A model generated the notes under the pieces. That model was not told the DNA's origin. It saw only the letters and a program-made list of their open reading frames with translations, and ran no database searches. A stretch of DNA of 14,789 bases from an uncultured Porphyromonadaceae bacterium (lineage in GTDB: Bacteria; Bacteroidota; Bacteroidia; Bacteroidales; Muribaculaceae): positions 1-14,789 of the forward strand of contig CAMWZE010000009.1 of NCBI GenBank assembly GCA_947178685.1, given 5' to 3'. Positions 1 to 14,789 of the stretch are shown one piece after another (position 1 is the first letter of the stretch; each line of letters opens with the position of its first letter). A program made the position numbers and the translations under genes.

Positions 1-594
1 CTCGTGGCTTATATGGTCGAAGCAACCCTTTATATCTCCCTCTAACACCCATTCGGGTGAGTATGAACGAGACAGCAAGGTGTGGCACCGAATCATTGCA
101 TCAGCGCAACAGCGGTTTTTCCTGAACCCAAAGGAAAATTTGTCCGAGGTAGTTTCTGCCACTGGGTCAAGTGCCATAAGATGCAAAGCCTGCATTGCAC
201 GGTCTTTCATTGTTGGAATACCCAAGGGGCGGAGTTTGCCGTTACTCTTCTTGATGTTTACTCTCTTTAACGGAAGTGGCTTGTAGCCTCTTCTCCTAAG
301 TGTGAAAATGGCCTTGAACTTTAGTTCAGGAGAAGACCAAAGGACTTTGTCGACCCCTGAGGTCTTAGAGCCACTATTCGAGGTCACTCGTCTTACCGCC
401 AATGCCTTGGCATAGAACGAGTGGGTAAGCGTCCATTGCAAAGATTTAACCTTGCCATGCTTACCTTCTTTTTGAGCTTTTACAATACGCGCCTGAAGCT
501 TCTTGACCGCTCCTTCAGCCTTATCCCAGTCTATGCTGGTCCAGTCTTGGTTTCGGTCAGAAGGCGCACACTTTATATTTCTATTTCCGTTCAT
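1..594 (-). CDS. ltrA: Group II intron reverse transcriptase/maturase, N-terminal 198 residues (partial)
   Basis: This is the intron-encoded protein that assists splicing and copies intron RNA into DNA during retrohoming. Translating from the ATG at 594 gives 198 codons, open to the window edge. Residues about 14-95 match the RVT_N-type N-terminal extension: W-x-x-IDW, KLQARI, AKALAVRRVTSN and a SGVD motif. Residues 114-135 (IKKSNGKLRPLGIPTMKDRA) are the RT1 region. Residues 184-193 (LEGDIKGCFD) hold the first catalytic Asp, motif A. The YADD box, maturase domain and any endonuclease domain lie outside. The start is favoured by a purine-rich GAAGGAAAG about 3 nt upstream and by its position after the ribozyme 5' half. 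The RVT_N architecture is known from chloroplast-like bacterial introns; that class assignment is inference. No frame disruption is seen. Confidence 0.93.
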   Translation of the reverse strand, partial: MNGNRNIKCAPSDRNQDWTSIDWDKAEGAVKKLQARIVKAQKEGKHGKVKSLQWTLTHSFYAKALAVRRVTSNSGSKTSGVDKVLWSSPELKFKAIFTLRRRGYKPLPLKRVNIKKSNGKLRPLGIPTMKDRAMQALHLMALDPVAETTSDKFSFGFRKNRCCADAMIRCHTLLSRSYSPEWVLEGDIKGCFDHISHE

Positions 595-1220
595 TTGCTT
601 TCCTTCTTTAAGAAGTTCTTTAAGTTATCTTGTAAAAGAATTACCGCGTGGAAGTCTGCTCACTTTCGTGCCGGATAATATTGTCAATGCTATGCATAGC
701 ATCGACTCAATCCATATCCGCTCCATTACAGAACGGCATTCGCTTTTTCCACATTCTCATACCTGCATACCATTCAGCATTCCTCGCGGTCAGCTTACCC
801 CTATGGGGAGATATACAGGCTTACCGAGTTTCATGTAGATGCCAAACCAATGGGTTAGGTTCTGTCTCTCAGCCGGCGGTTCTGATGTTCGTGCATTCTC
901 AAAATTCACAAGAATGTCCCACCGCTTTACCTTTTGGTTCAAGCCTATCAGCGTTGTTTGGCTTGTTCGACTTAACGACCTTTAAATGACAGTTCGCTTT
1001 CGCTAACCATACCATTGAGCCAAGCCCCCAGACCGCATAACGCTTGCAGTCGTTGAAATCCCCTCACGGTTCATTCTTCCCCTTTTGGGAGGGTTACCTT
1101 GTCGGGGCAGCTTAGCACAGTTTCTACCGCACCTGCCCTTAGGCTACTATTGACGAAACAATAGGTTTAATCAGAGTAATGCTCAGTTAAACAGCCATCT
1201 ACATGACTTTCTCGTCACAC
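595..1220 (-). ncRNA. Group II intron ribozyme 5' half (domains I-III and start of IV)
   Basis: This 626-nt non-coding stretch lies between the 5' splice site and the intron protein start, the usual place and size for domains I to III. Local helices are visible on the minus-strand RNA. One is CTATTG/CAATAG closing a small loop (about 1150-1170). A second is GGGCAG pairing with CTGCCC (about 1105-1138), with a wobble-rich inner stem. A third is a 10-bp hairpin with loop UGCA at 683-706. The individual domain borders, exon-binding sites and tetraloop receptors were not resolved with confidence. Short plus-strand open frames here are not credible genes. Confidence 0.8.
683..706 (-). other. Strong hairpin within the intron RNA, near the domain III/IV border
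   Basis: The 24-nt segment can fold into a 10-bp stem with a UGCA loop, including one G-U pair on the RNA strand. Its core at 687-702 (ATGCTATGCATAGCAT) is a perfect 16-bp DNA palindrome. It lies about 90 nt upstream of the intron protein start. The likely role is a ribozyme stem in domain III or early domain IV; a protein-binding or translation-control role is possible but not shown. Confidence 0.5.
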
Positions 1221-1934
1221 GAACTTATAATCATAAACCATCATCGCAAAACCCTTCTCCGCGTGCTGACGAATAAAAGGATCGATTATACCGAAAGACT
1301 TACCCGACCCCGGCGTACCCAAAACAATAGTTCCCCGGAACGGATTGATAATGTTGATAAAACCGTTGTGCATACGCTTCTTCCAATAGAAAATCATCGG
1401 GATATTCACCGAATAGGGAGTCTTGACCTCCTGACGCGACTGTTCAAAAGATTCGTTCTCAAAATTGAAGCGGTCCTCGCCGACTTTCATATTGTAATAC
1501 TTCGCTATTCCGTCAAGACCCTGATGAACCAGCATAGTTCCGATCACCGAACAGAAAGCATATAGCACCCGGCTTGCAGGAAAGCCGAACATCGACATTC
1601 CCCATTCGCCATGATGGAAAATGAAACAGAGTCCGACAAGGGTGATACCGGTCAGGACCGGGTAGATCACCATTGTCTTAACATTGAACTTCAAAGCCTT
1701 CTTAGCCTTGGTGCCGATTGCAACTATACAGATGCAGATAAGTTCCGCAACCTTGCAGCTCGCCACGGAATTGAAAACCTTGAAGCGTGCAAGCAGATCG
1801 AGGATGAATGCCGTGATACGATTGTCAGCCGTGATGGGCAAATTCATCACAATCTCAATTATAAGGAATATGTAGATGCAGCTACGGAAGTAGTTATACA
1901 TCATCTGCTGTTCCTTGGTCTCCTCAACACTCAT
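1221..1934 (-). CDS. Type IV coupling protein (TraG/VirD4-like ATPase), 5' exon, interrupted by group II intron
   Basis: Coupling proteins are hexameric inner-membrane ATPases that recruit the relaxase-DNA complex to the conjugation channel. The exon encodes 238 residues. The N-terminal half has hydrophobic segments at about 16-35, 64-75, 88-107 and 121-138, the membrane anchor. Residues 199-238 carry the FRGTIVLGTPGSGKSFGII signature, with Walker A GTPGSGKS at 206-213, then AMMVYDYKF. Homologues continue this last motif with Pro and the rest of the ATPase domain. Here the reading frame meets GTG TGA, the intron 5' end, so Walker B and the C-terminus must be in a 3' exon beyond the window. 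The start lies 1 nt after the traO stop, so translation is probably coupled. CTnDOT calls its equivalent MobC, but the symbol is left blank because of naming confusion with the VirB4-like TraG. This is not a pseudogene if splicing occurs. Confidence 0.92.
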
Positions 1935-1935
1935 C

Positions 1936-2448
1936 TCAGAAAGGGATTTTAAGACCGACCATCAGACCATTCCGGAAAAGGTCGCCATGAAGGAAACACA
2001 CATTGTTCTTCTGAATCACCGAGAACTCAATGCCGGAAGGAAACACATAATCATACTCGAAACCGGCCTCAAGACCGAGGAAGAAATCTTTCTGGACGGC
2101 ACCCAACACAGGGCCAGCACGGAAAGAGAACTTACCGTTCTTGAATCTCTTCAGCTGATGCTTGTAGAGAAGACCTCCGTCCCAGAAATAACCCTTCCAA
2201 AACTGACCATCGCCAACCTTGCGATGATTGCCAAGTTCGCCGAACAACTCAAAGGCTCGGCCATAAGAGAAACCATACTCATACCCCACGGTGGCATCCA
2301 GCGTGGCAGGGAAAAGAAAACCGGCATTGACCGTGAAACGGTTCTCCGCTTTTGCGCTCACGAATGAACAAACGCAAACTACTCCCACAAGCAGAGTCTT
2401 TACCACAAGACCCTTTGCTTTCTGCAATATATTCTTCAACCCTTTCAT
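1936..2448 (-). CDS. traO: Conjugal transfer protein TraO, outer-membrane beta-barrel type
   Basis: The product is 170 residues: a signal peptide (hydrophobic about 15-30, probable cleavage after SAKA at 34), then alternating aromatic/hydrophobic strands rich in Gly, Phe and Tyr, ending in Phe (GLKIPF). A terminal Phe is typical of outer-membrane beta-barrels. Size, position after traN and strand pattern agree with TraO of Bacteroidetes conjugative transposons, an outer-envelope component whose exact role is not settled. Its ATG overlaps the traN stop in an ATGA arrangement (2445-2448), and the coupling-protein gene begins 1 nt after its own stop. This implies tight translational coupling across the three genes. 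Confidence 0.85.
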   Translation of the reverse strand: MKGLKNILQKAKGLVVKTLLVGVVCVCSFVSAKAENRFTVNAGFLFPATLDATVGYEYGFSYGRAFELFGELGNHRKVGDGQFWKGYFWDGGLLYKHQLKRFKNGKFSFRAGPVLGAVQKDFFLGLEAGFEYDYVFPSGIEFSVIQKNNVCFLHGDLFRNGLMVGLKIPF

Positions 2449-3347
2449 CTTGACTCGTATAAATGTTTGGTATGGTTATAATTCCAAGGTATCTTATTGA
2501 GGATGTCGGCGTCAAAGCCGTCAGCATTGAGGATATCCTCATAGTGGATGGTCATGGAGATAACACGACCGCTGATCTGATTCTCAGAAATCTCCAGAGT
2601 CAGCACCTTCTCGTCAGGGAAGGTCAGCTTCGGGAGCACAAGCACATTGCGGTAGTGCTTCCTGAACTTCTTCGCTGTGTTGAGCGAAAAGACCGGTGTC
2701 AGTTCCACGGTCTGAGAATTTGTAGCCTTGACCTCCTTCTTGTCAGCAAGCTTCACACGCAGTTCCTCTATATCGTAAGGAATCTTCGTCTTATTCTCCA
2801 GGGAATAGTCAATGAAAAAGAAATCCCCGATGGAATAGATATTGTTGATCACCGCCTTCATGCCATGTTTCTTGGAGACAATCTGGTTGTACTTCCGACC
2901 GCTCCCATAGACAGCCCAAGCGTAACGTGCCATCTCAGCCTCCGGCATGGTCACGTCAGGATTGACGTAAGACTCCAGATCGGAGTAAGGCACATAGAGC
3001 ACGGACTCAGCCGAAGCAGGACGGGAGGAATAGATGATATCATACTGGGCGATGTGGCGTTCACCGATAAGGGTAAGGGTGCCGATAAGCTCATTGTCGC
3101 GGTATTGCGCCGGACGGTTGTCAGGATCCGGATCATCCTGCCCCTCGATAAAAGGCTTTATGCGCACGATATTGTCATTGCACTGGTTGCCGGCAATCTT
3201 GGTAGTGGAAATATCCACCATCTTGATATTCTCCGGCATGACGATGTGAGTGGTCACCTCACTGTTGACGATGATACGGCTCTTGGCCGAAGTAACCGCG
3301 ACCCCGGAAAGAAGAGCCAAAGCCGCAATAAAGAATTTGGGTTTCAT
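2445..3347 (-). CDS. traN: TraN, VirB9-like periplasmic conjugation protein (DUF4138)
   Basis: Starting at the ATG at 3347, the product has 300 residues with a clear signal peptide (MKPKFFIAALALLSGVAVTS, cleavage near AKS). The C-terminal half has the family hallmark YSLENKTKIPYDIEELRVKL, followed by ADKKEVKATNSQ and a Pro-rich beta region, as in the TraN/DUF4138 proteins of CTnDOT-like elements. In the wider type IV model this protein works with TraM (VirB10-like) in the outer core complex. An in-frame upstream ATG at 3413 would add 22 residues ahead of the signal peptide; it was rejected because the added stretch is basic and AT-rich and spoils the signal peptide. The gene follows the longest gap of the operon and overlaps traO by 4 nt. 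Confidence 0.9.
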   Translation of the reverse strand: MKPKFFIAALALLSGVAVTSAKSRIIVNSEVTTHIVMPENIKMVDISTTKIAGNQCNDNIVRIKPFIEGQDDPDPDNRPAQYRDNELIGTLTLIGERHIAQYDIIYSSRPASAESVLYVPYSDLESYVNPDVTMPEAEMARYAWAVYGSGRKYNQIVSKKHGMKAVINNIYSIGDFFFIDYSLENKTKIPYDIEELRVKLADKKEVKATNSQTVELTPVFSLNTAKKFRKHYRNVLVLPKLTFPDEKVLTLEISENQISGRVISMTIHYEDILNADGFDADILNKIPWNYNHTKHLYESR

Positions 3348-3486
3348 ATATGTCTTGATTATTTGCTTGGAATATTTCTTGTAGAAATTATTACCGATAA
3401 ACCTTACTACCAATAATCAATGTTACTGATAACAATAATTACTGAATGTAAATATTATTAATAATAAAGATTACCAATTTATCCAA
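3348..3486 (-). promoter_or_regulatory. A+T-rich intergenic gap between traM and traN with palindromes; possible internal regulatory region
   Basis: This 139-bp spacer is the only sizeable gap in the operon and is much richer in A+T than the flanking genes. It contains a perfect 14-bp palindrome (TATTATTAATAATA, 3453-3466) and a small inverted repeat, TGTTA/TAACA with a 4-nt loop (3421-3434). Immediately after the traM stop on the minus strand comes TAAATTGG, which resembles the Bacteroides -7 element TAnnTTTG with one mismatch, but no convincing -33 partner was found. It could hold an internal promoter, an mRNA processing site or only a leader. No clear GC-rich terminator is present. The functional assignment is inference. 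Confidence 0.35.
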
Positions 3487-4716
3487 TTATCTTGCCTCAT
3501 CTGAATTGATAAGGTAAACGACTGTGTTATACTTGATTTTCGCCTTGTTCTTACGGATATTGGCAGAGACAGCTGAAGTGGCGGAATTATATAGATTCTG
3601 CAATGCCTGAAGAGCGATGGACTCTCCGGATATGCCACCTCCGTAACCGCTTTCTGACTCAAAACTGATGTTCTGCTGAACGGTAGAAGCACCGGCTTCC
3701 TTCATAAAATCGCGGAAAGCAGATTCAGGGACATAGAAGCCCTCCATGCCGTCATTGTCGAAGACCGACAGGTTCACATTGATGAACTTGCCACCGATAA
3801 GAATACTGGTAACATTGGCCCGAACACGCTGCTGACCGAAACCTGTTACGGTGCCATACAGATATGTGCCTTTCTTCAATCTTGTACCGTTGACAATCAC
3901 ATCATCGAGAAGCTTGAAACGGAGACGTGTTCCCTCATGCGCCTTTGTGGTCTTGTCGATCATCGCACGGATAAGGGAAGCGTCAGCCTGTTCAAACTCG
4001 CTCCCGACCGTGTTGAACTTCTCCGAATTTGTGTCATTGGATTTTATCACCAACTTAGGACGGTTACGTTCCTTTTCCTCTTTCTTTGCCTTGGCGATGG
4101 AATCGGCACGGAGTTTCTGTTGTCTCTCCGTCTCAGCCTCGGCATTGGTGTTGAAACCAAGTCCGGCTTCGATAGCCTTCTGCCGTTCGTAACTCCGCAT
4201 CTGTATCTGTTCAAGTTCGGAAGCGAAATCATCACCCGAAGAATATCCGGAACCACGGCTTCCCGAATAACCGGAAGAAGAACCCCCTGAACGGGAATCA
4301 TCACCGTAGGCATAAGAATTGATATGCTTGCGCGACTCAGCAAGGGAGCGTTCCAGTTCCTCAAGCTCACGCTGCTGACGGAGGCGTTCAGCCTCGGCTG
4401 CATCGATGCGGTCAAGTTCCTCCTCGGAATAACCGTGGTCCAGGGTTTCCGTTTCCTCCTGTTCCTCACCCAGACCTCCGACTGCCGTAAATGCGTCATC
4501 ATCGCCGAAGCGCCGGGACATCTCATACATCTTGCTTCCAGCCTCCTGAGCGTTAGCCTCCGGAAGCTCCGTGTTGATACGGTCAGTTGCCACTTTCTGT
4601 TTCTCCTCACCACCTGCACCGAACGTCTGCATCACGAAATATATCAGCGCACAGAGAGGGACAAAGATAACCAGAGGGAAGATGTACTTCGGTTGTTTAA
4701 AGTTTATCTTTACCAT
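3487..4716 (-). CDS. traM: TraM, VirB10-like core-complex protein
   Basis: The product has 409 residues: a short cytoplasmic tail, one membrane helix (11-30), then a long periplasmic linker. The linker has an acidic/charged helical segment (about 84-130, likely coiled coil), a Gly/Ser/Tyr-rich flexible stretch (137-162) and a second charged helix (167-219). The conserved VirB10/TraM domain occupies about 240-409, with DDVIVNGTRLKKGTYLYGTV and the characteristic FDNDGMEGFYVPESA. The domain order matches Bacteroidetes TraM proteins, which span the envelope and link inner-membrane ATPases to the outer core. The gene lies 56 nt after the traL-like gene. The low-complexity linker is the only part not typical of a rigid fold. 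Confidence 0.92.
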   Translation of the reverse strand: MVKINFKQPKYIFPLVIFVPLCALIYFVMQTFGAGGEEKQKVATDRINTELPEANAQEAGSKMYEMSRRFGDDDAFTAVGGLGEEQEETETLDHGYSEEELDRIDAAEAERLRQQRELEELERSLAESRKHINSYAYGDDSRSGGSSSGYSGSRGSGYSSGDDFASELEQIQMRSYERQKAIEAGLGFNTNAEAETERQQKLRADSIAKAKKEEKERNRPKLVIKSNDTNSEKFNTVGSEFEQADASLIRAMIDKTTKAHEGTRLRFKLLDDVIVNGTRLKKGTYLYGTVTGFGQQRVRANVTSILIGGKFINVNLSVFDNDGMEGFYVPESAFRDFMKEAGASTVQQNISFESESGYGGGISGESIALQALQNLYNSATSAVSANIRKNKAKIKYNTVVYLINSDEAR

Positions 4717-4772
4717 AACTGTTATAAATGAATTTGATTTGTTGTCAATTTTTCAAAGAGATATTAGGATTC

Positions 4773-5255
4773 TTACTCACTATTCTTCAAAGTTTTCACA
4801 ATCCTTTCGAGCTTTAAATAATTCATCCGGATCTGGATTGAATCAGCCCTTGTTTTGACCGGAAGGGCGATAAGGGAATCGAGTTGGTGCCGTATCACAT
4901 TACCTGAAAGGGCCATATCAGAAAGAGTCTTGCGGTGTATGTCCTTATTCTCCTGAATAGTCCTAAACCCGTTGAACACCGTATCGATAGAAGCGATATC
5001 AATATTCGGACCTGCAGGTTTCACCGGATTGAAAAGGGTCAGTGAAAGGTCTGCAAGGAAAATTATAAGGAGAGTCGAGAACACAATAGCGAAAGTGCGC
5101 TTGGGATTCTTCGATGCACGGGAATTTAGAAGCCTTATCCTCGGGGCGAGTCTCAGCCGGGCACCGGCCTTAGACATCAGCGGTCGTAACAGAGACTCCA
5201 CCCCGTTTCCGATCTTTCTCTTGGATTCCCGAAATTTCTTCTTCAAAGATTTCAT
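4773..5255 (-). CDS. traL: TraL-position single-pass membrane protein
   Basis: The product has 160 residues: a strongly basic N-terminal cytoplasmic part (1-52, many Lys/Arg), one membrane helix (about 53-75, TFAIVFSTLLIIFLADLSLTLF) and a periplasmic, probably helical, C-terminus. It sits exactly where traL lies in CTnDOT-like operons, between traK and traM, 11 nt after the traK stop. Known TraL proteins (DUF3989) are also small and bitopic but shorter, around 100 residues, so this one has a longer periplasmic tail. I recognise it by position and topology more than by sequence; TraL may tether inner-membrane parts of the channel. The symbol is tentative. Confidence 0.7.
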   Translation of the reverse strand: MKSLKKKFRESKRKIGNGVESLLRPLMSKAGARLRLAPRIRLLNSRASKNPKRTFAIVFSTLLIIFLADLSLTLFNPVKPAGPNIDIASIDTVFNGFRTIQENKDIHRKTLSDMALSGNVIRHQLDSLIALPVKTRADSIQIRMNYLKLERIVKTLKNSE

Positions 5256-5266
5256 ACCACTTCGAT

Positions 5267-5863
5267 TTAATAGTCAAGGTCCTTATTCTCGATAGTCCTC
5301 CAACCGGTTATCATCAGCCCATGAGGATTATTCTCAGTTCTCGGGACATTCTCGATAAAGCCGGTGGTAATCATGGAGCGCTTCAGGTCACGGGTTCGGC
5401 GCTTGATAAGCTGGGTGCCGTAATAGGTGAACTTGCGCTCATGTTCGTCAAAGTGTATCGAGTCACACATTATCGTACAGACCGCCGAAGAAGAAATTAT
5501 ATCGGAGTAGAAGCCGTTCTCATCCATAGCCTGTTTCTGTTTCAGCGCCGTTCCGTCAGCCATATACATGGCCTTTCCGACAGTCCACTTGATATAGTCA
5601 TTATCGGGCGGGAGATTGAAGAAATACTGATGGAAAAGCTGAATATGGGCGCGTGCCTCCATGATGAAATTGGATTCAAGCTTGGCCCTCTGGGCGAGGA
5701 AAGGTATGTCACCGTCGAGCACATATATCTGCTGACGTTCCTCCGATATTTTAGCAAGGCAACTCCAGACGGTGAACCCGCAGATCAGGGCGCAGCCCCC
5801 GATGGAGGCAAGCACCGTGATCATAGCGAGACGCGTCTTCTGTGCCAAGGACTGAATTAGCAT
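5267..5863 (-). CDS. traK: TraK, VirB8-like inner-membrane conjugation protein
   Basis: The product has 198 residues with an N-terminal membrane helix (12-35). The periplasmic domain begins EERQQIYVLDGDIPFLAQ and contains EARAHIQLFHQYFFNLPPDNDYI. It ends NNPHGLMITGWRTIENKDLDY. These are the landmark TraK features (IYVLD, AR-H--FH--FF-L-P, NPHG-x-I-x-G-x-x-x-x-ENKDL) of CTnDOT-like systems. VirB8-type proteins act as assembly scaffolds that contact VirB6 and VirB10 homologues, here TraJ and TraM, encoded on either side. The start lies 13 nt after the traJ stop. Recognition is strong and nothing is missing. Confidence 0.94.
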   Translation of the reverse strand: MLIQSLAQKTRLAMITVLASIGGCALICGFTVWSCLAKISEERQQIYVLDGDIPFLAQRAKLESNFIMEARAHIQLFHQYFFNLPPDNDYIKWTVGKAMYMADGTALKQKQAMDENGFYSDIISSSAVCTIMCDSIHFDEHERKFTYYGTQLIKRRTRDLKRSMITTGFIENVPRTENNPHGLMITGWRTIENKDLDY

Positions 5864-5876
5864 AACTTTTTAAGAA

Positions 5877-7064
5877 TTATTGTTGAGATTTCTGTTTCAC
5901 TGTACTTGCCATGTGATCCCCTTTGAGATTACGTTTCCCCATCTCACTGAGACCGTAGGTAACTGAGGTCGTACCTCCATAGACTGCGCTACCTGCGGTC
6001 ATACCTGCTCCGGCTGTAGCCGAGAGAGCACCGACAGCCGCCGCTCCTGCGGTGGAACCTGCACTGCTGCTTACGCCACCCGGAATCAGCCATGATGAAA
6101 CCTCAGGCACAAAGCGGATAATATACGCGCCGACCATCATACCCATGGCGTACATGCAGTTAGAGCCAATGCCCTGCAGACCAAGTGCACCTATCTGTGA
6201 CCAAGAGTTGACCGACCCTTGCAAAAGGTGGTCGTATGCCACAAGGTCTTTCTGAAGATTGTAAAGCAGAATAAAATCCACATAATACATAATGGTATAG
6301 ACCACGAAACCCCACAACGAGAGGGAAAGATACTTGGATATCCATTGGCTCCACGCCGACTTCCACGGCGGAGCAAGGGAAAGGGCGAACATGATAGGAC
6401 AGAAAATTGTCATTATAGCCATAAACACGCGCTGGGCGACAAGCATACCGTAATATGACATCTGGAAAATCAGTTCCCCGATGAAGCGGATAATATCGTT
6501 GATCCACTCGCTGACCTTGGTCTCGGCAGCGACCGCCGCACGCTGGGCGTAATCACGGATAGTGTCACTGAGGTGAGCCACATTATAGACCAGTTCCTCA
6601 TACCATACGGCATCCTCACCGATAGCCTGAACCTGTTGGGCCGCTGCCACGGAATCCTGCACAGCCCGTAATTTATCAAGGTAATCAGCCTGACGCTGGG
6701 CTACCTTAAGTTCAAAAGCGGCGACCTCCTTATTCTTTGACTTAGCCATGCTCATTGCGCTTGACTCCAATCCAGATGTCATGCCGGCAAGGGAAGAACA
6801 GATAGTCCCGCTGTTGGCTATGCACAGGGAGATGCCTATGATACGGAGCAGCTTCATCACATCCATGCCACGTCTGCCGAGCATCATCATCCAGCTCTCG
6901 TAGGCACCGACGCACAAGGCAAGCAGAAGGCCGATTGACTTAGCCATCGAGATAGCGGGTCCGAAACCGGGAGGGTTGGCACCGCTCATTGCCTCCAGAA
7001 GTCCGGCAAGGCTCTCGTCAATGGCCGGAAGCCCCATTGTGCAGAGTATATTTAAAAGTGTCAT
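5877..7064 (-). CDS. traJ: TraJ, VirB6-like polytopic membrane channel protein
   Basis: The product has 395 residues with several membrane segments: about 38-62, 70-95, 190-228 (long, partly split), 245-268 and 298-318. A charged helical region (105-145) lies between them, and the C-terminal tail is rich in Gly, Ala and Ser (329-370). Size, topology and position just before traK match Bacteroidetes TraJ, the VirB6-like inner-membrane pore component. Motifs such as FCPIMFALSLAPPWKSAWSQ and WISKYLSLSLWGFVVYTIMYYVDF are characteristic. The start ATG at 7064 is followed directly by a hydrophobic stretch. The gap from the DUF5045-like gene is 42 nt. Confidence 0.92.
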   Translation of the reverse strand: MTLLNILCTMGLPAIDESLAGLLEAMSGANPPGFGPAISMAKSIGLLLALCVGAYESWMMMLGRRGMDVMKLLRIIGISLCIANSGTICSSLAGMTSGLESSAMSMAKSKNKEVAAFELKVAQRQADYLDKLRAVQDSVAAAQQVQAIGEDAVWYEELVYNVAHLSDTIRDYAQRAAVAAETKVSEWINDIIRFIGELIFQMSYYGMLVAQRVFMAIMTIFCPIMFALSLAPPWKSAWSQWISKYLSLSLWGFVVYTIMYYVDFILLYNLQKDLVAYDHLLQGSVNSWSQIGALGLQGIGSNCMYAMGMMVGAYIIRFVPEVSSWLIPGGVSSSAGSTAGAAAVGALSATAGAGMTAGSAVYGGTTSVTYGLSEMGKRNLKGDHMASTVKQKSQQ

Positions 7065-7106
7065 TGCTGTTTAGCAGTTAGTAATGAAAATAATGGAATA
7101 GAAATA

Positions 7107-7790: not shown

Positions 7791-7831
7791 ATTTTATTTC
7801 TTTAGGGGTTAATAAACTTTCATCAGCAATA

Positions 7832-8617
7832 TCAGTAATCATCCGGATTCTCACCCACGGCGTTCCATTGTCCGATAAGGATACCGACAATCTCATCCTT
7901 GACATCCGAGGTAAGGATTTCCCAGATGTAATCAGGCTTCCAGGCACCCTCGGTCATCAGATAGCAATAGAGGTTGGCATTGTCGATAATAGCCCTCGCC
8001 CGGTCAATGCTCGTCTTGAGTACCATCACCAGATTCAGTTTCTCATCCATTGAAGCCTTCATCACATTCAGTCCTGCGGCAGCCATTGAAGCGTAAAGTT
8101 TCTGGCAATGCTTTATCTCACGGCTTATCGCCACATTTGCCTCCGTGTAATACCATGCGACAAAAGGTTTTTTCAACACAGTGTTGTATGTGTTGACCGT
8201 AAAATCCTTATACTCCTTTGTAAGAGAATAAAGTCCGGTAGCAGTACTTGAAATTGCAGCTGCAAGAATCACATACGAATAGGCGTTGTTAAGCTTGGAG
8301 TCAAGAGTGGTCCGGACATCATTGAACTTCCTGGAAGCCTTGGTTATGATGGTCTGCTCACCGAAGCTTGTTGCGACATTCTTCAGTGCTTCGTCCTCAT
8401 CCTTCTTCACCTGCTTGTGGAGAGCCATCAGAGCCTCGAAGGTCGGCAAATCCCGTGGATAGTCAAAAGCGCTTGCTTGTCCGGAACCGAGGATTGCGAG
8501 GGAAAGGGTAACGAAAAAAACTTTCCTCACATGATTCTTATGTAGGGAAGTAGAGAAGGCTTTCTTGATGAAAAGAGCGAATGATAAACTGGCAATCTTA
8601 TTTTTCTTCATAATCAT
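7832..8617 (-). CDS. Second TraI-like exported protein, probable paralogue of the upstream gene
   Basis: The product has 261 residues. A long basic leader (1-31) precedes a hydrophobic stretch (33-44) and a probable signal cleavage after QASA at 50. The mature part is mostly helical. I know no named family for it. It shares features with the preceding TraI-like protein: a hydrophobic/helical segment, then WYYTE (155-159), then a long helical region, and an x-x-W-N near the end (IGQWN). This suggests a VirB5-like minor pilus or adhesin role, but the resemblance is by eye only. It lies 19 nt after traI. An alternative start is the second Met at 8611. Confidence 0.7.
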   Translation of the reverse strand: MIMKKNKIASLSFALFIKKAFSTSLHKNHVRKVFFVTLSLAILGSGQASAFDYPRDLPTFEALMALHKQVKKDEDEALKNVATSFGEQTIITKASRKFNDVRTTLDSKLNNAYSYVILAAAISSTATGLYSLTKEYKDFTVNTYNTVLKKPFVAWYYTEANVAISREIKHCQKLYASMAAAGLNVMKASMDEKLNLVMVLKTSIDRARAIIDNANLYCYLMTEGAWKPDYIWEILTSDVKDEIVGILIGQWNAVGENPDDY

Positions 8618-8636
8618 CAGTTTGAAAAGTTGTCAA

Positions 8637-9467
8637 TTAATCAAAAGTTCCCCATGAAACTATATCCTGAAAAATCGGGTCAAGCTTTGTCCGGTCAATC
8701 GTCACCTTCTCCCAAGCCACACCGCCTGTATTGTTCCAGTCATCAATCAGACCGCTCACGGCATTCTGCATCACCATGACATTTGCCCATCCTTCCGGGT
8801 CAATGGCAAAGAAAAGGTCATTCATGGTGGCATACTGGGCCATAGCCATCATTCCCTGAATCTTGTACCTCAGTTCAAGAAGATCTGTATAGATGCGGTT
8901 TGCGATGGAAAGCCTCTCATACCGGTCAAGAAGATTATAGCCGTCATTCTCACCAGACTCACCGGAGTTATCGCCGAGAGGATTCCGGATCTTCCCGTTG
9001 TTGACGATGTTCACAAAGTCATTCACGAGTTTCTGCGTCTTGGTCACCACACCGGCGAGTTCACCGAGACAGAGCAGCTGGTTATGCCACTTCGCATCCT
9101 TGACTACCTTTGTAACTTCCGGCACATCCTTGATGATGTCGTAGGCGCATCTTCCGATTTCGGTATAATACCAACTTTCTTCACCAAAACCCTTGATATT
9201 CTCCATAGTCAGCTTATAGACCTCCTTCATGGTCGCCATGCTGACGGTGTAAAGTTCAATCTTCTTCTGTTTCGCATTTATGGAATCGAGACGCTTGTTA
9301 TGCTCCCTCTCAATAGCCATTTGGGAAAGAGTGTTGGTAAGAACCGTAGCGGTAGTCTGCGGGTCGGTAACAACCCGGTACACTGCCAAAACCTTAGCCG
9401 GCAAAAGAAGAGACAGCATCATCATCGTGAGAATCAGAAGTTTCTTATACCTCTTTTCCGTCATCAT
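8637..9467 (-). CDS. traI: TraI-position exported protein, VirB5-like
   Basis: From the ATG at 9467 the product has 276 residues: a signal peptide (TEKRYKK then hydrophobic LLILTMMMLSLLLPAKVLA), then the mature start VYRVVTDPQTT, followed by a long helical body. Bacteroidetes TraI (DUF4141) proteins likewise begin just after the signal with a VVTDPT-type motif and are helical, and they follow traG. Function is inferred from position: a periplasmic VirB5-like component needed for the mating apparatus. A longer start at 9500 overlaps the end of traG by 10 nt and would add a 12-residue leader; the 9464-9467 ATG pair gives a cleaner signal peptide. The WYYTE motif (99-103) recurs in the next gene. 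Confidence 0.78.
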   Translation of the reverse strand: MMTEKRYKKLLILTMMMLSLLLPAKVLAVYRVVTDPQTTATVLTNTLSQMAIEREHNKRLDSINAKQKKIELYTVSMATMKEVYKLTMENIKGFGEESWYYTEIGRCAYDIIKDVPEVTKVVKDAKWHNQLLCLGELAGVVTKTQKLVNDFVNIVNNGKIRNPLGDNSGESGENDGYNLLDRYERLSIANRIYTDLLELRYKIQGMMAMAQYATMNDLFFAIDPEGWANVMVMQNAVSGLIDDWNNTGGVAWEKVTIDRTKLDPIFQDIVSWGTFD

Positions 9468-9490
9468 ACTTTTCTGAATACTTAAAGTCT

Positions 9491-12322
9491 TCACTTCCAT
9501 TGCGCCATAATCTTTTGATGTGAATTAACCTTTCGGGCGAAGTCCAGATATTTCTTGATACCTGTCTTCTTCCTGTCTCTCTCGATATAGGTGATAGCCT
9601 CCTGCATCGTGCCGTAATGACGTAGGTAAATCTTCAGTGCCTCCTTCTCAGCACGCTCCGTAGTGTAGGCCCAGTAGCACTCAGGCGGTTCCTCGACCCC
9701 ATAGACATCCGAGTTCTGACCACGACATATCCAGACCTCCTTGAAGTAGTTGCGGTTATCGTGGTTGTTAAGGGCATTGACGGTGAATATCTGCTGACGC
9801 TGTATGGCTGTCAGACCAAGAATAGCAGCAATATCCTCGTATCGGTCCTTGAACTTAGTCTGGTCGAGAAGAATCTTGATGTCCGAATTATTGATGATAG
9901 CCTCCTTAACGATAGGGGAATCTATCACATCGTTAAGTTCCTGAGTCACCACACCGGCTATGCCATGAAACTTGCGGACAGTCTTATAGAGATACTTGAT
10001 ATACTCCGCCATTGTCGGAGAAGCAATCGCCTTCCAAGCTTCCTCGATAATCAGTGCCTTGCGTCCCTTCTTGATGCGCATTTTCTGAAGAAACACGTCC
10101 ATGATGATGAGAACCACGATAGGGAAAAGAACCGGGTCGTCCTTAATCTTGTCAATCTCGAATACAATGAACTTCTCGTCGAACAGATTAATGTCAAGGT
10201 CGCAGTTAAGGGTCATCTCCAGTTCGCCGCCCCTGTAGAACTGCTTGAGAATTGAGGCGAAATCGTGGATGTCGAAGGAGATTTTCTCCTGAGAGGTAAT
10301 CTGAGGTATACGCTCCAATGCAAACTCATAATAGGAATTGAAGGAAAGCTCCGGAACCTTAAGGCGGCGCTTCTGTTCCTCGATGTGGTCAATCTGCTTG
10401 TCGATCTTGATAAGCATGGAGTTCTCGTACAACTCCTTCTTGTATCTCTCCAATTGGGAAATAGCCCTCTCTTTCTCAGATTCCGTTGCTCCCTTGTCAA
10501 GTATTATTGCATTGAAGGCACGGCACTGACGGATCAGCTTATCTCGTCTTTCCTCCGAGGGAAGCATCAGTGCGTGCTTCTCAATCTTTGCAGGCTCCTT
10601 CTGAATCTGCTCCTCGATGTCCTCCATTTTCTGAAGGGTCTCCTCGTAATCTTCCTCCATTTTGGCATTTACAAGGAGTTTCTGGCGCAGACTCTCACGC
10701 TCTTCATCAGTGAAAGAGGTGAACGGATGGAAGAAAGCCTCGTAATACTCCACGATAGTCTGGTTGATGAGCATATCCTCAATCTTAGTAGGTGGCTCGT
10801 TGCCTTTGAAAATCAGGAATATCAGGGATTTAAGGAAGTTCTTCTTCTCACCGAAATTCAGGTTGTACTCCTCATCCGTCACCTTGAAAGGATTCATCGA
10901 TATAGGCTTCTCCTTTGAATAAGAGATATAGGTTCCCCCGAAGTAACCGCATATGCCCTCGTAAGAATCACCGGTATCAACCATCACCACGTCCGTTCCC
11001 TGTTCGAGCAATTGCCGGACAACGCTATTCATGTGGAATGATTTTCCACTGCCCGACGGACCGATGCAGAAGAAATTGGCATTGTCGGTCATCTTGATCT
11101 TTCCCTCCTTGCCCGTAATGTCGATGCAGACAGGAAGACCTTGACGATCCGTGTAGAAAGTTGTCAGCGGAGTCTCCTCAGACTGCTTGAGATGTTCCTT
11201 GAAGAAGAAGCACAAAGCGGCATCCGATAGAGTGAGGAAAAGATCATAGTCCGGATTGAAGGAATATCCGTTTCCCGGGAACGAGTCCAGGAAAAGTTCC
11301 ATCTGATTATAGGCGGTGCGCGAAGCCATGATGCCGCACTCATATAGTTTGGTCTCCAGAAAAGAAGTCACCGGAGTCACCTTGTCAGGAGCACAGCTCA
11401 CAAGGATATTGAAATTGGTATGTACGAGAAGGGTTGAATCCACTGCGAGAAGATTCAGCACTTCCTCGATGTCCGCCTTGGCAATCTTGTTGCTCGGGTC
11501 GGGCATTGAGCCATGACGCTTTGCCTTACCCTGAAGCTTGCGTAGAAGTTTGCGTTGACTCGGAATCTGAACCACCTGATTATACACCACGCAATCGGCA
11601 TGGGGAATCTGGGTAAGGAAAGAGAGCACATCCGTAGCGATTGCATAGCCGTTCACGCTCATCTGGGTATAAGGCTTGACCCACGTGGGAAGATTAATCT
11701 CGTCAATATCCACAAGAGGATAAGACTTCACAATTTTATCTCCTATTCTCAGATACTCGTCCGAAGCCTTGAAATTGGTCATGGTGAAGGCACCGTGTCG
11801 GAAATTGAAAGCCATGAAGCGGTGGCAGTATTCGCTGACCTCCGGCTTCGTGAGCTTGCGGTGGCTTATACCCTTTTCGGCAAGTATATCGCAGACCTTT
11901 GAAATCTTGGCATGGAAATCAAGCCACTTCTTAGGGTCATACTGAACGAACCTGCTTTTCTGTCCCTCCTGGGTGATGATAAGGTAGGTCGTAATCTCTG
12001 TGAACTCCCTTCCCTCGAAGTATCTGAAATAGCTTTTAGTCAGAAACTCCGCACCCTCGGGCACCGAATGGGTGTATGCCTGACGGCAGAGAATATCCTG
12101 CTTCTGGAGACAGTAACCCTCGCCGAGAGTCTGCACGATATTTGAAAGCACATCCTGAAACAGCATGTACTGTTCGGCATCCGTGCAGAGCTGCTGCACA
12201 GGATTGGTCATGCGTATGATGACCGACGGCTCACCCTTGGCAGAGAAAAGCACAACGTTACCGTCCGTCTCCTCAAGTTGGGCGTAAAGACCGTCAAACA
12301 CACGTTTCTTAGATGTTGCCAT
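9491..12322 (-). CDS. traG: TraG, VirB4-type conjugation ATPase
   Basis: The product has 943 residues. The N-terminal VirB4 domain (about 1-400) begins MATSKKRVFDGLYAQLEE. Walker A is GPSGSGKS (421-428), with SMNPFKVT downstream. Walker B is ALIIEEAW (756-763), with the coupled motif GVVTQELND (about 790-798). The C-terminal region contains YGVEEPPECYWAYTTERAEKEA, as in CTnDOT-type TraG. This ATPase powers assembly of the channel at the inner membrane. The ATG at 12322 was chosen because the open frame further upstream to 12523 reads through traF in another frame. Between the Walker motifs lies a long, highly charged helical insert (about 540-655) that appears longer than in CTnDOT TraG. The start is 19 nt after the traF stop; the end lies close to traI. 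Confidence 0.95.
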   Translation of the reverse strand: MATSKKRVFDGLYAQLEETDGNVVLFSAKGEPSVIIRMTNPVQQLCTDAEQYMLFQDVLSNIVQTLGEGYCLQKQDILCRQAYTHSVPEGAEFLTKSYFRYFEGREFTEITTYLIITQEGQKSRFVQYDPKKWLDFHAKISKVCDILAEKGISHRKLTKPEVSEYCHRFMAFNFRHGAFTMTNFKASDEYLRIGDKIVKSYPLVDIDEINLPTWVKPYTQMSVNGYAIATDVLSFLTQIPHADCVVYNQVVQIPSQRKLLRKLQGKAKRHGSMPDPSNKIAKADIEEVLNLLAVDSTLLVHTNFNILVSCAPDKVTPVTSFLETKLYECGIMASRTAYNQMELFLDSFPGNGYSFNPDYDLFLTLSDAALCFFFKEHLKQSEETPLTTFYTDRQGLPVCIDITGKEGKIKMTDNANFFCIGPSGSGKSFHMNSVVRQLLEQGTDVVMVDTGDSYEGICGYFGGTYISYSKEKPISMNPFKVTDEEYNLNFGEKKNFLKSLIFLIFKGNEPPTKIEDMLINQTIVEYYEAFFHPFTSFTDEERESLRQKLLVNAKMEEDYEETLQKMEDIEEQIQKEPAKIEKHALMLPSEERRDKLIRQCRAFNAIILDKGATESEKERAISQLERYKKELYENSMLIKIDKQIDHIEEQKRRLKVPELSFNSYYEFALERIPQITSQEKISFDIHDFASILKQFYRGGELEMTLNCDLDINLFDEKFIVFEIDKIKDDPVLFPIVVLIIMDVFLQKMRIKKGRKALIIEEAWKAIASPTMAEYIKYLYKTVRKFHGIAGVVTQELNDVIDSPIVKEAIINNSDIKILLDQTKFKDRYEDIAAILGLTAIQRQQIFTVNALNNHDNRNYFKEVWICRGQNSDVYGVEEPPECYWAYTTERAEKEALKIYLRHYGTMQEAITYIERDRKKTGIKKYLDFARKVNSHQKIMAQWK

Positions 12323-12341
12323 TACTGTTCTTTTATTTTCG

Positions 12342-12629
12342 TTAATTACTGAAAAGCCGGGAGTAGATGAACACTCCCCGGTGCCGTTTCTTGTTATGGA
12401 GACCGCCTTTCTGCTTGACATAAATCGTAAGGAGGCCGGCCACCGCCATGACGAGCATGGCAATGAAACCGGCCAGCTTGCCGAGAATGATCGAGAAGGC
12501 GATGAACCCCACGAAAGAGACACCGATTGCAGCCGCAGCCAATATCAGGAAGCGGCCACGGATACCCATGAACTCCAGAGGTTTCTGCAACCCCTTGAAC
12601 ACCGGGTAGCCGTCCGGATTTATCGCCAT
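12342..12629 (-). CDS. traF: TraF, small inner-membrane conjugation protein (DUF4133)
   Basis: The product has 95 residues: an N-terminal segment with FKGLQKPLEFMGIRGRF, two adjacent membrane helices (about 26-48 and 52-71), and a basic tail KKRHRGVFIYSRLF. The arrangement 'KG-x-x-x-P-x-EF-x-G' before two helices is the DUF4133/TraF signature in Bacteroidetes transfer operons and resembles VirB3-like proteins. VirB3 works with the VirB4 ATPase, which fits the location directly before traG. The start at 12629 is 24 nt after the traE stop. Confidence 0.88.
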   Translation of the reverse strand: MAINPDGYPVFKGLQKPLEFMGIRGRFLILAAAAIGVSFVGFIAFSIILGKLAGFIAMLVMAVAGLLTIYVKQKGGLHNKKRHRGVFIYSRLFSN

Positions 12630-12653
12630 GTCAGTCGTTGATTTTCCGGTTGA

Positions 12654-12754
12654 TCACTTGAAGAACAGGGGCAACGCCTCAGACAGAGCGATGAAGGAAA
12701 CACAGCCACCGATGGTGAGCATGATGGTTTTCTTCACATCCTGATCGCCGTTCT
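12654..12754 (-). CDS. traE: TraE (DUF4134), 3' exon of an intron-split gene
   Basis: After the intron the frame reads NGDQDVKKTIMLTIGGCV, then SFIALSEALPLFFK and a TGA stop at 12654. This matches the C-terminus of TraE/DUF4134 proteins, whose usual form has a conserved GD-x-D/D-x-x-K turn before the last membrane helix. TraE is a small VirB2-like membrane protein of about 100 residues. Only about 33 residues lie here; the 5' exon is beyond the right edge, across the intron. The first exon base is at codon position 2 if the 3' splice site is at 12755, so exon 1 should supply the first base of the split codon. No ATG of its own gives a sensible protein. Confidence 0.85.
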
Positions 12755-12815
12755 GTGGGCTCGACACCGAGCGCGTAACCACATTACTGTGGCACGTTTC
12801 ACCGTGTCTGCCCCC
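12755..12815 (-). ncRNA. Group II intron domain VI with branch-point A and 3' splice site
   Basis: A long stem closes with GGGC pairing GCCC (12760-12757) and GACAC pairing GTGTC. It is capped by an inner hairpin CCACA-GUAA-UGUGG with a GNRA loop. On the 3' strand, a G-A pair of unpaired bases leaves A at 12761 bulged, 7 nt from the end of the intron, exactly where a branch-point adenosine is expected (7-8 nt). The intron then ends in AC at 12755. The junction is inferred from this geometry and from the traE frame. Confidence 0.82.
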
Positions 12816-12849
12816 AAACCGTACGTACATGTCTCCATGTATACGGCTT
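12816..12849 (-). ncRNA. Group II intron domain V (catalytic core)
   Basis: The 34-nt element has all the family hallmarks: a basal stem of 8 pairs carrying the AGC catalytic triad (12848-12846) with a G-U pair, an apical stem UACAUG/CAUGUA, a GAGA tetraloop of GNRA type, and a two-base CG bulge on the 3' side. It lies 37 nt after the maturase stop codon. Domain V is the most conserved part of these ribozymes, and every expected pair is present, which indicates a structurally intact, probably splicing-competent intron. Confidence 0.95.
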
Positions 12850-12886
12850 TCCAGTGGTTTAACTATGTGTTCAGCAAAGAATCGTC

Positions 12887-14698
12887 TCATTGTTTACTCT
12901 GATTTATTATATCCATACAAGTTTTGCATACGGCAAGCGTCTTGCGCCTGCGCTTCAACATCTGTCGTCCCCATGGGGTGTTCTTGTCAAGGCATGACAT
13001 CATGCGGACATGATGCATATAGAGCACCTCATTATCCTTTCCACATAACTCACATACCCCCGATTTAAGGCGGTGGGCAAGTGTTGTCGCAGGAAGAAAT
13101 TCGTTGGGACATTCAACGGAAGGTTGCACGTCATACCCTTTGGCTTTCCTCGCAAAACCTTGATTATACAGCACACTCTCTTTGATAGAGCCGTCTTTTG
13201 TCCGATATGAAATCGAGAAGCGGCCGTTATTGGTGTATTTGCTCTTAATCTTGATTTTAGTCGTGTTGAGTTTCTGGGCAAGCGTCTTACACAGACTATA
13301 TTCCATGATGTACGCAAACGACGAGCATTGTCCCGAACAGTTGTTGGCAATGCAATAGTAGTTGTAGAATCCACGGATTTCTGAGTTGAACCTCTCAAGG
13401 ATTTTGTGTGGCTTCATCGCAAGTAACTTGGGGCGTGATTTTGGCTTCCATACGATTTTGCCGTTCTCTGAGGTGTACTGCACGGCATCGTACTTTTCAA
13501 GTGCCTTTCTCACTGTCTCCGAGTTAAGGAGAAGGTGGACTTTCCCTTTGTGGTTCCTTTGCAGGATTCCGTTCCTTGTCCTGCTCATTCTTTCGGATGT
13601 ACGGACTGTAATGTCATATCCGAGAAACTTGGCTGTCTCCTGCGCGTGGGTTATAAGTGTCTTTTCGGGGGAGAGTTCGAGATGCAGGCAATCACGCATA
13701 TATATTGTGATGTCAGCCTTTATTCTCTCGCAATCCTCTTTAGACCCTATTACACCAATGAGGAAGTCATCCGCATATCTCGTATAGACGATGCGTCTGT
13801 AATCATCGTCAATGTCGAGTTTGCAAGGTAGGGTTCGCAACTTAGCTTGCATAAGGGAAATGCGTTCCCTCAATTCGGCTCTCTTGTTTTCATCAGTCTC
13901 TTTCCGGAGTTTCCTTCTCAATGCACAAGTCTTAGTGTTGAGATTGAAGTATTCCGGATTTCGTTTGCGACCTTCTCCTCTGTTGAATGTTTCAGCATAG
14001 CGAGCCATGTGACGGTCAAAATGGTCAAGGTAGATGTTGGCAAGTATCGGTGAGATAATGCCCCCTTGCGGTGTGCCGTGATAGGACTCGTGAAACTTCC
14101 AGTCCTCAACATATCCTGCATTGAGGAACTTCCTAATGAGCCGTAAGAAACGTTCATCGGATATTCGCTCGCGTAAGATTCCTATCAGTATGTCATGGTC
14201 TATGTTGTCGAAGAATCCTTTTATATCACCTTCGACAAACCATTTCACACCTGTGAAAGTCTTTTGAATCTGTGTCAGTGCAGTGTGGCAACTTCTGTAA
14301 GGTCTGAAACCATGTGAGCGGTCAGAGAACGCTCCTTCATATATAGCTTGCAGAATCATTCTTACCACTTCCTGCACCAGCTTGTCATTCCACGATGGAA
14401 TACCGAGGGGACGTAACTTTCCGTTCTTCTTGGGAATGTACGTTCTCCTTGCAGGTTTTGGGGAATAGGTCTCATCTTTGAGACTGTCAATCAGTCGCGT
14501 TATCTTCATGAGGCTCATTCCGTCCATAGTGTCTCCGTCAGTGCCAGGGGTCATATTCCCTTGCTTGACTTTGAGCCGTTCATAGGCGGCATGATACATT
14601 TCCTCATTGAAGAGAATGCGGTAAAGACGCTCGAACTTATAGTCCGAGACTTTGCTGTGTGAACACAGAGCGTCTAATATTATCTGTGGATTTCTCAT
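12887..14698 (-). CDS. ltrA: Group II intron reverse transcriptase/maturase with C-terminal HNH-like domain
   Basis: The product has 603 residues from the ATG at 14698 (MRNPQIILDALCSHSK, the usual start for this type). An upstream in-frame ATG at 14755 would add 19 residues of intron RNA-derived sequence. The reverse transcriptase domain includes PKKNGKLRPLGIP, motif A VEGDIKGFFD (155-164), GTPQGGIISP (208-217) and the catalytic YADD (308-311), followed by LELSPEKTLIT. The maturase domain spans about 385-525. The C-terminal endonuclease-like domain has CELC (549-552), HH (562-563), RRRKTLAVC and CKTC (591-594), but the His that usually follows the last CxxC is Met and the usual final His is absent. 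The protein resembles mitochondrial-like bacterial intron proteins (inference). It should promote splicing and mobility of the traE intron. Confidence 0.96.
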   Translation of the reverse strand: MRNPQIILDALCSHSKVSDYKFERLYRILFNEEMYHAAYERLKVKQGNMTPGTDGDTMDGMSLMKITRLIDSLKDETYSPKPARRTYIPKKNGKLRPLGIPSWNDKLVQEVVRMILQAIYEGAFSDRSHGFRPYRSCHTALTQIQKTFTGVKWFVEGDIKGFFDNIDHDILIGILRERISDERFLRLIRKFLNAGYVEDWKFHESYHGTPQGGIISPILANIYLDHFDRHMARYAETFNRGEGRKRNPEYFNLNTKTCALRRKLRKETDENKRAELRERISLMQAKLRTLPCKLDIDDDYRRIVYTRYADDFLIGVIGSKEDCERIKADITIYMRDCLHLELSPEKTLITHAQETAKFLGYDITVRTSERMSRTRNGILQRNHKGKVHLLLNSETVRKALEKYDAVQYTSENGKIVWKPKSRPKLLAMKPHKILERFNSEIRGFYNYYCIANNCSGQCSSFAYIMEYSLCKTLAQKLNTTKIKIKSKYTNNGRFSISYRTKDGSIKESVLYNQGFARKAKGYDVQPSVECPNEFLPATTLAHRLKSGVCELCGKDNEVLYMHHVRMMSCLDKNTPWGRQMLKRRRKTLAVCKTCMDIINQSKQ

Positions 14699-14789
14699 AC
14701 GTCTCTCACGTCTTCTACAGTTAATAATAGACAGCCACCTGCCACCCTTCGCCATGTACGTGGCTTTCCCACGCTCGGACTACTATGGT

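What the first reader, a model, noticed from the sequence alone, without database searches (positions are those of the whole stretch)
1..14789. Two different group II introns split the first and last transfer genes seen in one conjugation operon
The 5' end of one intron interrupts the coupling-protein gene (1220/1221) and the 3' end of another interrupts traE (12755/12754), both in the sense orientation. The encoded proteins are of different types: an RVT_N-type extension on the left versus a MRNPQ-type protein with an HNH-like end on the right. Neither host gene can work unless its intron splices, so transfer would need two independent ribozyme events. Group II introns are known in conjugation genes (the Lactococcus relaxase intron Ll.LtrB is the classic case), but two intron types in one MPF_B operon is unusual. 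It could act as a gate on transfer or as a way for introns to ride on conjugation.
Basis: partly seen in the sequence, partly recalled or inferred. Interest (0 to 1): 0.78.

Follow-up and report, generated by a model that had tools for sequence, protein, structure and literature searches.

The report
Two site-specific introns split conjugation genes
A gut-type bacterial DNA-transfer operon has two unrelated self-splicing introns sitting inside transfer genes, each belonging to an intron family that keeps to one codon of one gene, which makes it a good natural system for asking whether such introns merely hitch-hike on DNA transfer or also slow it down.

Summary
The window is a Bacteroidales tra operon on the minus strand, and each end lies inside a different group II intron. 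The left end is the 5' part of an RVT_N-type intron in a MobC-like coupling-protein gene (after ...VYDYKF, 1221/1220). The right end is the 3' part, with an intact HNH-type IEP, of a second intron in traE (12755/12754).

Neither is an accident. A survey found 94 relatives of the two intron proteins; 82 sit in conjugation or other mobile-element genes, and 76 of the 76 with both junctions held keep the frame. Intron-protein trees sort by insertion codon (8 changes for 9 sites; 14 for 15), and the window's introns fall in the 'MobC DYKF' and 'TraE KM(Q)NGD' lineages. Identical introns (2534/2534) occur between flanks only 64-74% identical, so they move. Operons with two or three introns recur, one of them in Phocaeicola vulgatus ATCC 8482.

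Best reading: two retrohoming introns dedicated to conserved codons of conjugation genes, removed by splicing. 'Riding on conjugation' is supported. 'Gating transfer' is untested here, with a 3- to 4-fold precedent for Ll.LtrB. The partner exons lie off the contig. A striking new member of a known kind, not a new kind.

The parts
1..1220 (-). 5' part (1220 nt) of an RVT_N-type group II intron inserted in mobC; starts GTGTGACG at 1220
   Evidence: RF02012 hit 1165-1025; boundary against intron-free mobC; about 73% nt identity to the introns at the same mobC site in L113/L114
1..594 (-). N-terminal 198 aa of its intron-encoded protein (RVT_N + RVT_1), cut by the contig end
   Evidence: Pfam; NCBIfam TIGR04416 partial, below cut-off; dN/dS 0.085 and 0.077 against L113 and L114
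902..907 (-). candidate EBS1 (GAATTT), intron position 314, pairing with the last six exon bases AAGTTC
   Evidence: single best alignment column over 21 introns at different sites
1221..1934 (-). mobC-like (T4SS coupling protein) 5' exon, 238 codons, Walker A ...GTPGSGKS... to ...VYDYKF
   Evidence: NCBIfam NF041326 Bacteroid_MobC E 5.8e-46, 157 bits against a cut-off of 900; the intact homologue L008 is also below it (491 bits, E 4.9e-147), so MobC-like; intact homologues of 769-778 aa in L008 and L009; Pfam YWFCY
1936..2448 (-). unnamed ORF (170 aa) between traN and mobC, with relatives at the same place in other operons
   Evidence: no Pfam or NCBIfam hit; matched in many of the relatives shown
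2445..3413 (-). traN (DUF4138)
   Evidence: Pfam, TIGR03780 above cut-off
3487..4716 (-). traM
   Evidence: Pfam, TIGR03779 just under cut-off
5267..5863 (-). traK
   Evidence: TIGR03781 above cut-off
5877..7064 (-). traJ-like
   Evidence: TIGR03782, E 1.3e-15 but below cut-off
9491..12322 (-). traG (VirB4 ATPase)
   Evidence: TIGR03783, 439.6 bits, above cut-off; P-loop_TraG
12342..12629 (-). traF-like (DUF4133)
   Evidence: Pfam PF13571 E 4.8e-4, below cut-off
12654..12754 (-). traE 3' exon: AG + 32 codons + stop
   Evidence: 100% aa identity to the end of intact TraE in L001
12755..14789 (-). 3' part (2035 nt) of an HNH-type (LtrA-like) group II intron inserted in traE
   Evidence: RF00029 hit 12851-12755; 83.3% nt identity to the intron at the same traE codon in L158
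12887..14698 (-). complete intron-encoded protein (603 aa), RT with YADD, maturase domain, HNH domain, no internal stop
   Evidence: Pfam; dN/dS 0.067 against L158 and L005

Best explanation
The window is a Bacteroidales conjugation (tra) operon colonised by two unrelated mobile group II introns, each from a lineage that retrohomes to one particular codon of one conserved conjugation gene. The left intron belongs to a lineage that inserts after ...YDxKx of MobC. The right one belongs to a lineage that inserts after the first base of the Q/S codon in TraE ...KM(Q)NGD. Shown: positions, orientation, in-frame exon halves in relatives at these sites, site-faithful phylogeny, EBS1-IBS1 pairing that changes with the site, recent movement of sister introns between divergent elements, and purifying selection on the intron proteins and the host exons. 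Inferred: both introns splice out of the tra mRNA with help from their own proteins, so that TraE and MobC are still made, and the RNPs then home into empty copies of the same codons in other conjugative elements met through transfer. The most likely net effect on the element is neutral to mildly negative.
For: Ribozyme and protein domains present. Site fidelity: the RVT_N tree of 36 labelled rows and 9 sites needs 8 changes (shuffled minimum 18), the HNH-type tree of 43 labelled rows and 15 sites needs 14 (shuffled minimum 29). The left protein groups with the two MobC-DYKF proteins L113/L114 (SH-aLRT 98) although the MobC proteins there match the reference MobC at only about 32-35% identity. 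The right one groups with TraE-site proteins (100). Of 94 places, 82 are in conjugation or other mobile-element genes; 76 of those 82 have both junctions held, and 76 of 76 have phase-compatible open frames spelling a coherent motif. Split codons match across the junction: c|ag, c|aa and t|ca in TraE give Q, Q and S, residues seen in intact TraE (L001, L003); all seven introns at the integrase QIYA site give K or R. In 18 of 20 compared pairs the introns are 97.5-100% identical while the 300 bases upstream are 52-84% identical, e.g. L005/L013 2534/2534 with 63.7% upstream. EBS1 at one aligned column pairs with its own site (mean score 11.95 against 2.66 for other sites; the next column's gain is 2.2 against 9.3). 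dN/dS 0.067-0.085 for the intron proteins and 0.036-0.069 for the mobC 5' exon.
Against: No RNA evidence; splicing is inferred. The window lacks the traE 5' exon, the mobC 3' exon, the left intron's domain 5 and most of the left protein. Low dN/dS cannot prove that the genes still work if the introns arrived recently, and dS is large or saturated in several pairs. The mobC DYKF site was empty in 52 of the 52 VirB4 relatives in which that stretch is held, and only two other places (G152, G126) show it occupied. The window's own introns have no near-identical copy elsewhere in the search (83% and 73% at best), so recent movement is shown for their relatives, not for them. In one relative (G640, L238) a second VirB4 intron is truncated and its 3' exon was not found, so some intron-bearing operons do decay. 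The frame test picks the best of three phases, so frame alone has a 1-in-3 chance; the motif match is the stronger part.
Confidence: 0.85

Rival explanations
1. The two introns act as a gate: TraE and MobC appear only when both splice, so transfer is restrained or tied to conditions that favour splicing or maturase supply.
For: Ll.LtrB in the L. lactis relaxase gene lowers transfer of pRS01 3- to 4-fold by attacking spliced mRNA (PMC6003770, abstract and sections 8 and 15). The window has two such dependencies in one operon.
Against: Most relatives carry empty sites (an intron was found in traE or VirB4 in 7 of the 80 loci), and near-identical introns hop between elements, which fits a parasite better than a conserved control. 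Nothing here measures expression or transfer.
Confidence: 0.12
2. The genes are dead: insertion has inactivated traE and mobC and the element is a relic.
For: Partner exons are not visible in the window; L238 shows that a VirB4 intron can decay with loss of the 3' exon.
Against: The other tra genes of the window are open, exons and both intron proteins show strong purifying selection, and complete copies at the same sites in relatives keep both exons in frame.
Confidence: 0.1
3. Assembly artefact: the contig was joined or ended wrongly inside repeated introns.
For: Both ends lie inside mobile, repeated sequences, a usual place for short-read contigs to break; in genome G004, 17 of 31 domain 5/6 hits start within 60 bases of a contig's first base.
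Against: Each junction is reproduced at base level in independent assemblies carrying the same intron lineage at the same codon, and gene order from traE to mobC matches the relatives shown.
Confidence: 0.03

Closest known systems
Ll.LtrB / Ef.PcfG group II introns in relaxase genes ltrB and pcfG (PMC5072309, passages read; PMC6003770, abstract and sections 8 and 15)
   Same: Mobile group II intron in the sense strand of a conjugation gene, at a conserved protein motif, spreading between related genes at the same codon; LtrA-like protein with HNH for the right intron
   Different: Host genes here are traE and mobC, phylum Bacteroidota, two unrelated intron types in one operon; splicing and mobility not measured
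B.th.I1 and B.th.I2 of Bacillus thuringiensis plasmid pAW63 (PMC1196294, passages read)
   Same: Two group II introns in one conjugation region, one of them in the coupling-protein (VirD4) gene
   Different: There the two introns are related to each other and one lacks an ORF; here they are of two different classes
Group II introns elsewhere in gut Bacteroidetes ICEs (PMC6907783, passages read)
   Same: Group II introns reported in CTnDOT-like elements
   Different: In the passages read they are noted as inserted modules (one with ErmF) or as a counted MGE class; no passage seen describes codon-specific insertion into tra genes

Membership tests
Group II intron (right, traE) | Catalytic domain 5/6 and 3' end in AY next to the exon | tested here: met
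   RF00029 56.8 bits ending at 12755...GAGCCCAC|
Group II intron (right, traE) | Intron-encoded RT/maturase | tested here: met
   RVT_1, Intron_maturas2 and HNH above cut-off, YADD present; TIGR04416 299.4 bits against cut-off 300
Group II intron (right, traE) | 5' end GUGYG and EBS-IBS pairing | tested here: inconclusive
   Off the contig. Relatives at the same codon start GTGCG; in L005 and L158 the hexamer GCATTT at intron position 319 can pair with the exon's AGATGC, one base out of register from the column scan
Group II intron (left, mobC) | 5' end GUGYG, domain 1 with EBS1 complementary to the 5' exon | tested here: met
   GTGTG at 1220; RF02012 109.5 bits; EBS1 GAATTT pairs with AAGTTC, 5 Watson-Crick and 1 G-U
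Group II intron (left, mobC) | Domain 5/6 and complete RT/maturase | not testable with these tools
   Beyond the contig end; the relative at the same site in L151 has RT and domain 5
Site-specific retrohoming intron lineage | Same codon occupied by related introns in diverged host genes | tested here: met
   Trees and change counts; intron against flank identity
Group II intron | Splicing in the cell | not testable with these tools
   No RNA data available here
Ll.LtrB-like regulator of conjugation | Measured effect on transfer | not testable with these tools
   Needs a mating assay

The most novel reading that the evidence does not exclude
Gut Bacteroidales conjugation modules carry a guild of at least two dozen intron lineages, each dedicated to one codon of a core transfer or mobility gene. 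Multi-intron operons such as this one depend on several ribozymes at once, so that joint splicing sets the rate of gene transfer in the gut.
Probability: 0.12. Interest if true: 0.8.

Novelty: new member of a known kind. Interest (0 to 1): 0.5.

Why it matters
Whether introns in conjugation genes are passengers or brakes is open; as far as I know the effect on transfer has been measured mainly for Ll.LtrB. The relatives found here give a natural series of tra operons with no, one, two or three introns, of two unrelated classes. One two-intron operon is in a named reference strain, P. vulgatus ATCC 8482. The pattern also shows how a retroelement can track conserved protein motifs: in the RVT_N set, 8 of 12 EBS1 mismatches fall on the synonymous position of the penultimate codon.

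Tried and rejected
Plasmid collection with the whole window: only a 187-base intron piece matched, in 4 records. Non-intron interruptions among the 80 relatives (L015 MobC at residue 206; L075 and L078 VirB4 starting at residues 424/426) were looked at and set aside: no RT match in the three and no Rfam intron hit in L015 or L078; L075 was not given to Rfam. L238 first looked like a VirB4 gene with two working introns, but the second intron's 3' exon was not found, so it is not counted as an intact multi-intron case. IMG/VR scans gave 7 and 3 loci with relatives of the two proteins; one of the ten (L249) has VirB4 pieces downstream of its intron. A 3' junction was printed for six of the ten (L248-L253) and none of these is one of the window's two sites; L247 and L254-L256 were not resolved. 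EBS1 for the HNH-type introns: a signal at one alignment region, blurred by indels. An early regex put the 5' end of L162-L164 two bases off; corrected.

Paper searches for earlier reports of this pattern: (open-licence PMC only). No title or abstract listed there describes codon-specific intron lineages in Bacteroidales tra genes; full texts beyond the passages cited were not read, and subscription papers are not covered.
Full report
What the window is. The minus strand reads traE (3' exon), traF-like, traG/VirB4, a traI-position ORF, two further ORFs, traJ-like, traK, a small ORF, traM, traN, an unnamed ORF and the 5' part of a mobC-like gene. It is the transfer operon of a Bacteroidales conjugative element: 80 relatives of its VirB4 were fetched from GTDB genomes, and the gene order matches in the relatives shown.

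The two introns. At the left end, mobC breaks after codon 238 (...VYDYKF) and an RVT_N-type group II intron begins (GTGTGACG; RF02012 109.5 bits). At the right end, an intron with domains 5/6 (RF00029 56.8 bits) and a complete 603-aa RT-maturase-HNH protein ends just before the traE 3' exon. Intron-free relatives show that the bases on either side are contiguous codons in intact genes. The contig ends inside both introns, so the partner exons are off the contig, and no genome is held for it.

Are the sites occupied elsewhere? Among the 80 VirB4 relatives, 7 were found to carry a group II intron in traE or VirB4. L005 and L013 have complete traE introns at the window's codon; L002 and L004 are contigs that start in the 3' end of the same traE intron; L045 and L046 have complete VirB4 introns; L041 ends inside one in VirB4, judged from the first bases of its 5' end. 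TraE is uninterrupted there in 71 of the 77 loci that hold its end; besides the four above, L007 and L058 could not be read. MobC is uninterrupted at the window's codon in 52 of 80; in 26 no mobC is held, L024 ends before it and L015 is broken earlier by something else. Reaching further, I searched 397 genomes of the family of Duncaniella muris and 399 of the family of P. vulgatus with the two intron proteins. This gave 9 places over 300 bits and 34 places at E <= 1e-60 for the RVT_N query, and 17 and 34 places at E <= 1e-60 for the HNH-type query. At most three candidates per genome were scored, so these are undercounts, and only these two protein families were sought.

Where they sit. Of the 94 places, 82 lie in mobile-element genes (tally). 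Fifty-nine are in transfer genes: VirB4 21, MobC 19, TraE 9, TraI 6, MobB relaxase 3, TraN 1. The other 23 are in helicase-like genes (10), tyrosine integrases (9) and an ArdC-like gene (4). The remaining 12 are ectopic or could not be assigned: L118, L193, L194, L195, L198, L208, L214, L227, L233, L234, L239, L240. L193 sits at the very end of a tRNA-Gly gene. Assignments rest on tblastn with the window's genes and the reference MobC and TraE, on Pfam/NCBIfam for representatives, and otherwise on reading the junction peptide. The PW|RPSDLEQR helicase group (no Pfam hit for L188), TraN (L161) and integrase L211/L212 were named by eye; the ArdC match of L241 is below its cut-off.

Frames. For 76 of the 82 both junctions are held, and in 76 of 76 the two exon halves are open in a compatible phase and spell a coherent motif: EEAW|KAI of VirB4, QG|KKYYDAL of TraI, YDFK|PDLS of MobC, the split Q/S codon in TraE and K/R codon in integrase. 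The six untested are L113, L167, L168, L169, L224 and the second intron of L238. The script chose the best of three phases (for L141 the phase was set by homology to TraE), so the agreement with intact homologues is the real evidence. The two intron classes hit neighbouring bases: 1 nt apart in TraE (aligned by eye), 11 in MobC, 16 in TraI (counted from the junctions).

Site-specific lineages. Protein trees sort by site: 8 changes for 9 sites in 36 RVT_N rows (200 label shuffles, minimum 18), and 14 changes for 15 sites in 43 HNH-type rows (minimum 29); the seven ectopic rows in the trees were left out of the counts. Some rows are identical, and the trees are quick ones. The window's left protein joins the MobC-DYKF clade and its right protein the TraE clade. 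The HNH-type TraE site appears in two branches (window group; L169 + L206) on either side of the relaxase sites, which parsimony reads as an ancestral TraE site.

Targeting. Over 21 RVT_N introns one alignment column holds a hexamer that pairs with each intron's own exon. Ten pair fully; eight of the other eleven have their single mismatch at the synonymous position of the penultimate codon, L111 and L181 mismatch at another position and L114 has two mismatches. In the window this is 907-902. For the traE introns L005 and L158 a matching hexamer lies at intron position 319.

Movement. Of the 21 pairs compared at shared sites, L111/L112 are identical flanks included and say nothing. Of the other 20, 18 have introns 97.5-100% identical although the 300 bases upstream are 52-84% identical; the other two, L158 against L005 and L013, have introns at 77.0% and flanks of 67-80%. 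The 600-base downstream flanks run past the gene in the traE and integrase cases, so the upstream figure is the fair one. The clearest is L005 (D. muris) against L013 (Prevotella sp. MGM2): 2534/2534 in the intron, 191/300 upstream, 438/594 downstream. The window's own introns are more distant relatives: 83.3% to L158 in traE, 73% to L113 in mobC.

More than one intron per operon. G090 contig C385: TraE (RVT_N), VirB4 (HNH-type), TraI (RVT_N). G052 C15: VirB4 and TraI, plus domain 5 before a TraE 3' exon at the contig start. P. vulgatus ATCC 8482: TraE and VirB4, both RVT_N (L235). G090 C80: VirB4 and TraN. G001 C10: MobC and MobB. So the window's pair is uncommon but part of a pattern.

Mechanism and prior art. 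Shown: anatomy, frame, fidelity, pairing, movement of relatives, selection (IEP dN/dS 0.067-0.085; mobC exon 0.036-0.069). Inferred: splicing and protein function. pAW63 already has two introns in its tra region, one in virD4 (PMC1196294, passages). Ll.LtrB and Ef.PcfG sit at one conserved relaxase codon (PMC5072309, passages). Ll.LtrB lowers conjugation 3- to 4-fold (PMC6003770, abstract and sections 8 and 15). Hence: a new and informative member of a known kind. The gate remains a hypothesis; riding on conjugation is well supported.

Noticed in passing
L046/L175, L176-L179, L196, L197, L238 (VirB4 EEAW|KAI lineage): These introns begin CTGTGAC, with C instead of G at position 1, if the frame and the conserved Trp of VirB4 are to be kept; L180 begins CTGCGAC.
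   Followed up: partly
Genome G004 (Phocaeicola faecicola, holds L045): 31 domain 5/6 hits, 17 of them starting within 60 bases of a contig's first base, so introns seem to fragment this assembly.
   Followed up: no
L224 and L234 (G652): Two HNH-type introns in tandem: the 3' end ...CCTAC of one is followed directly by GTGCGCCC of the next.
   Followed up: no
L193 position 974: RVT_N intron inserted at the very 3' end of a tRNA-Gly gene, with two more tRNAs downstream.
   Followed up: partly
L210 and L160/L170: HNH-type introns inside MobB-type relaxase genes, in L210 within an H-rich stretch KHE(D)IDRHHLH that looks like the catalytic motif (motif recalled), much as Ll.LtrB does in Lactococcus.
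   Followed up: partly
L015 20535: mobC broken after residue 206 by an insertion without a group II intron hit.
   Followed up: no
L238 9191: VirB4 carrying an RVT_N intron and a truncated HNH-type intron; the last exon was not found, an example of decay.
   Followed up: partly
window 1936-2448: 170-aa ORF between traN and mobC, present in many relatives, with no Pfam or NCBIfam match.
   Followed up: no
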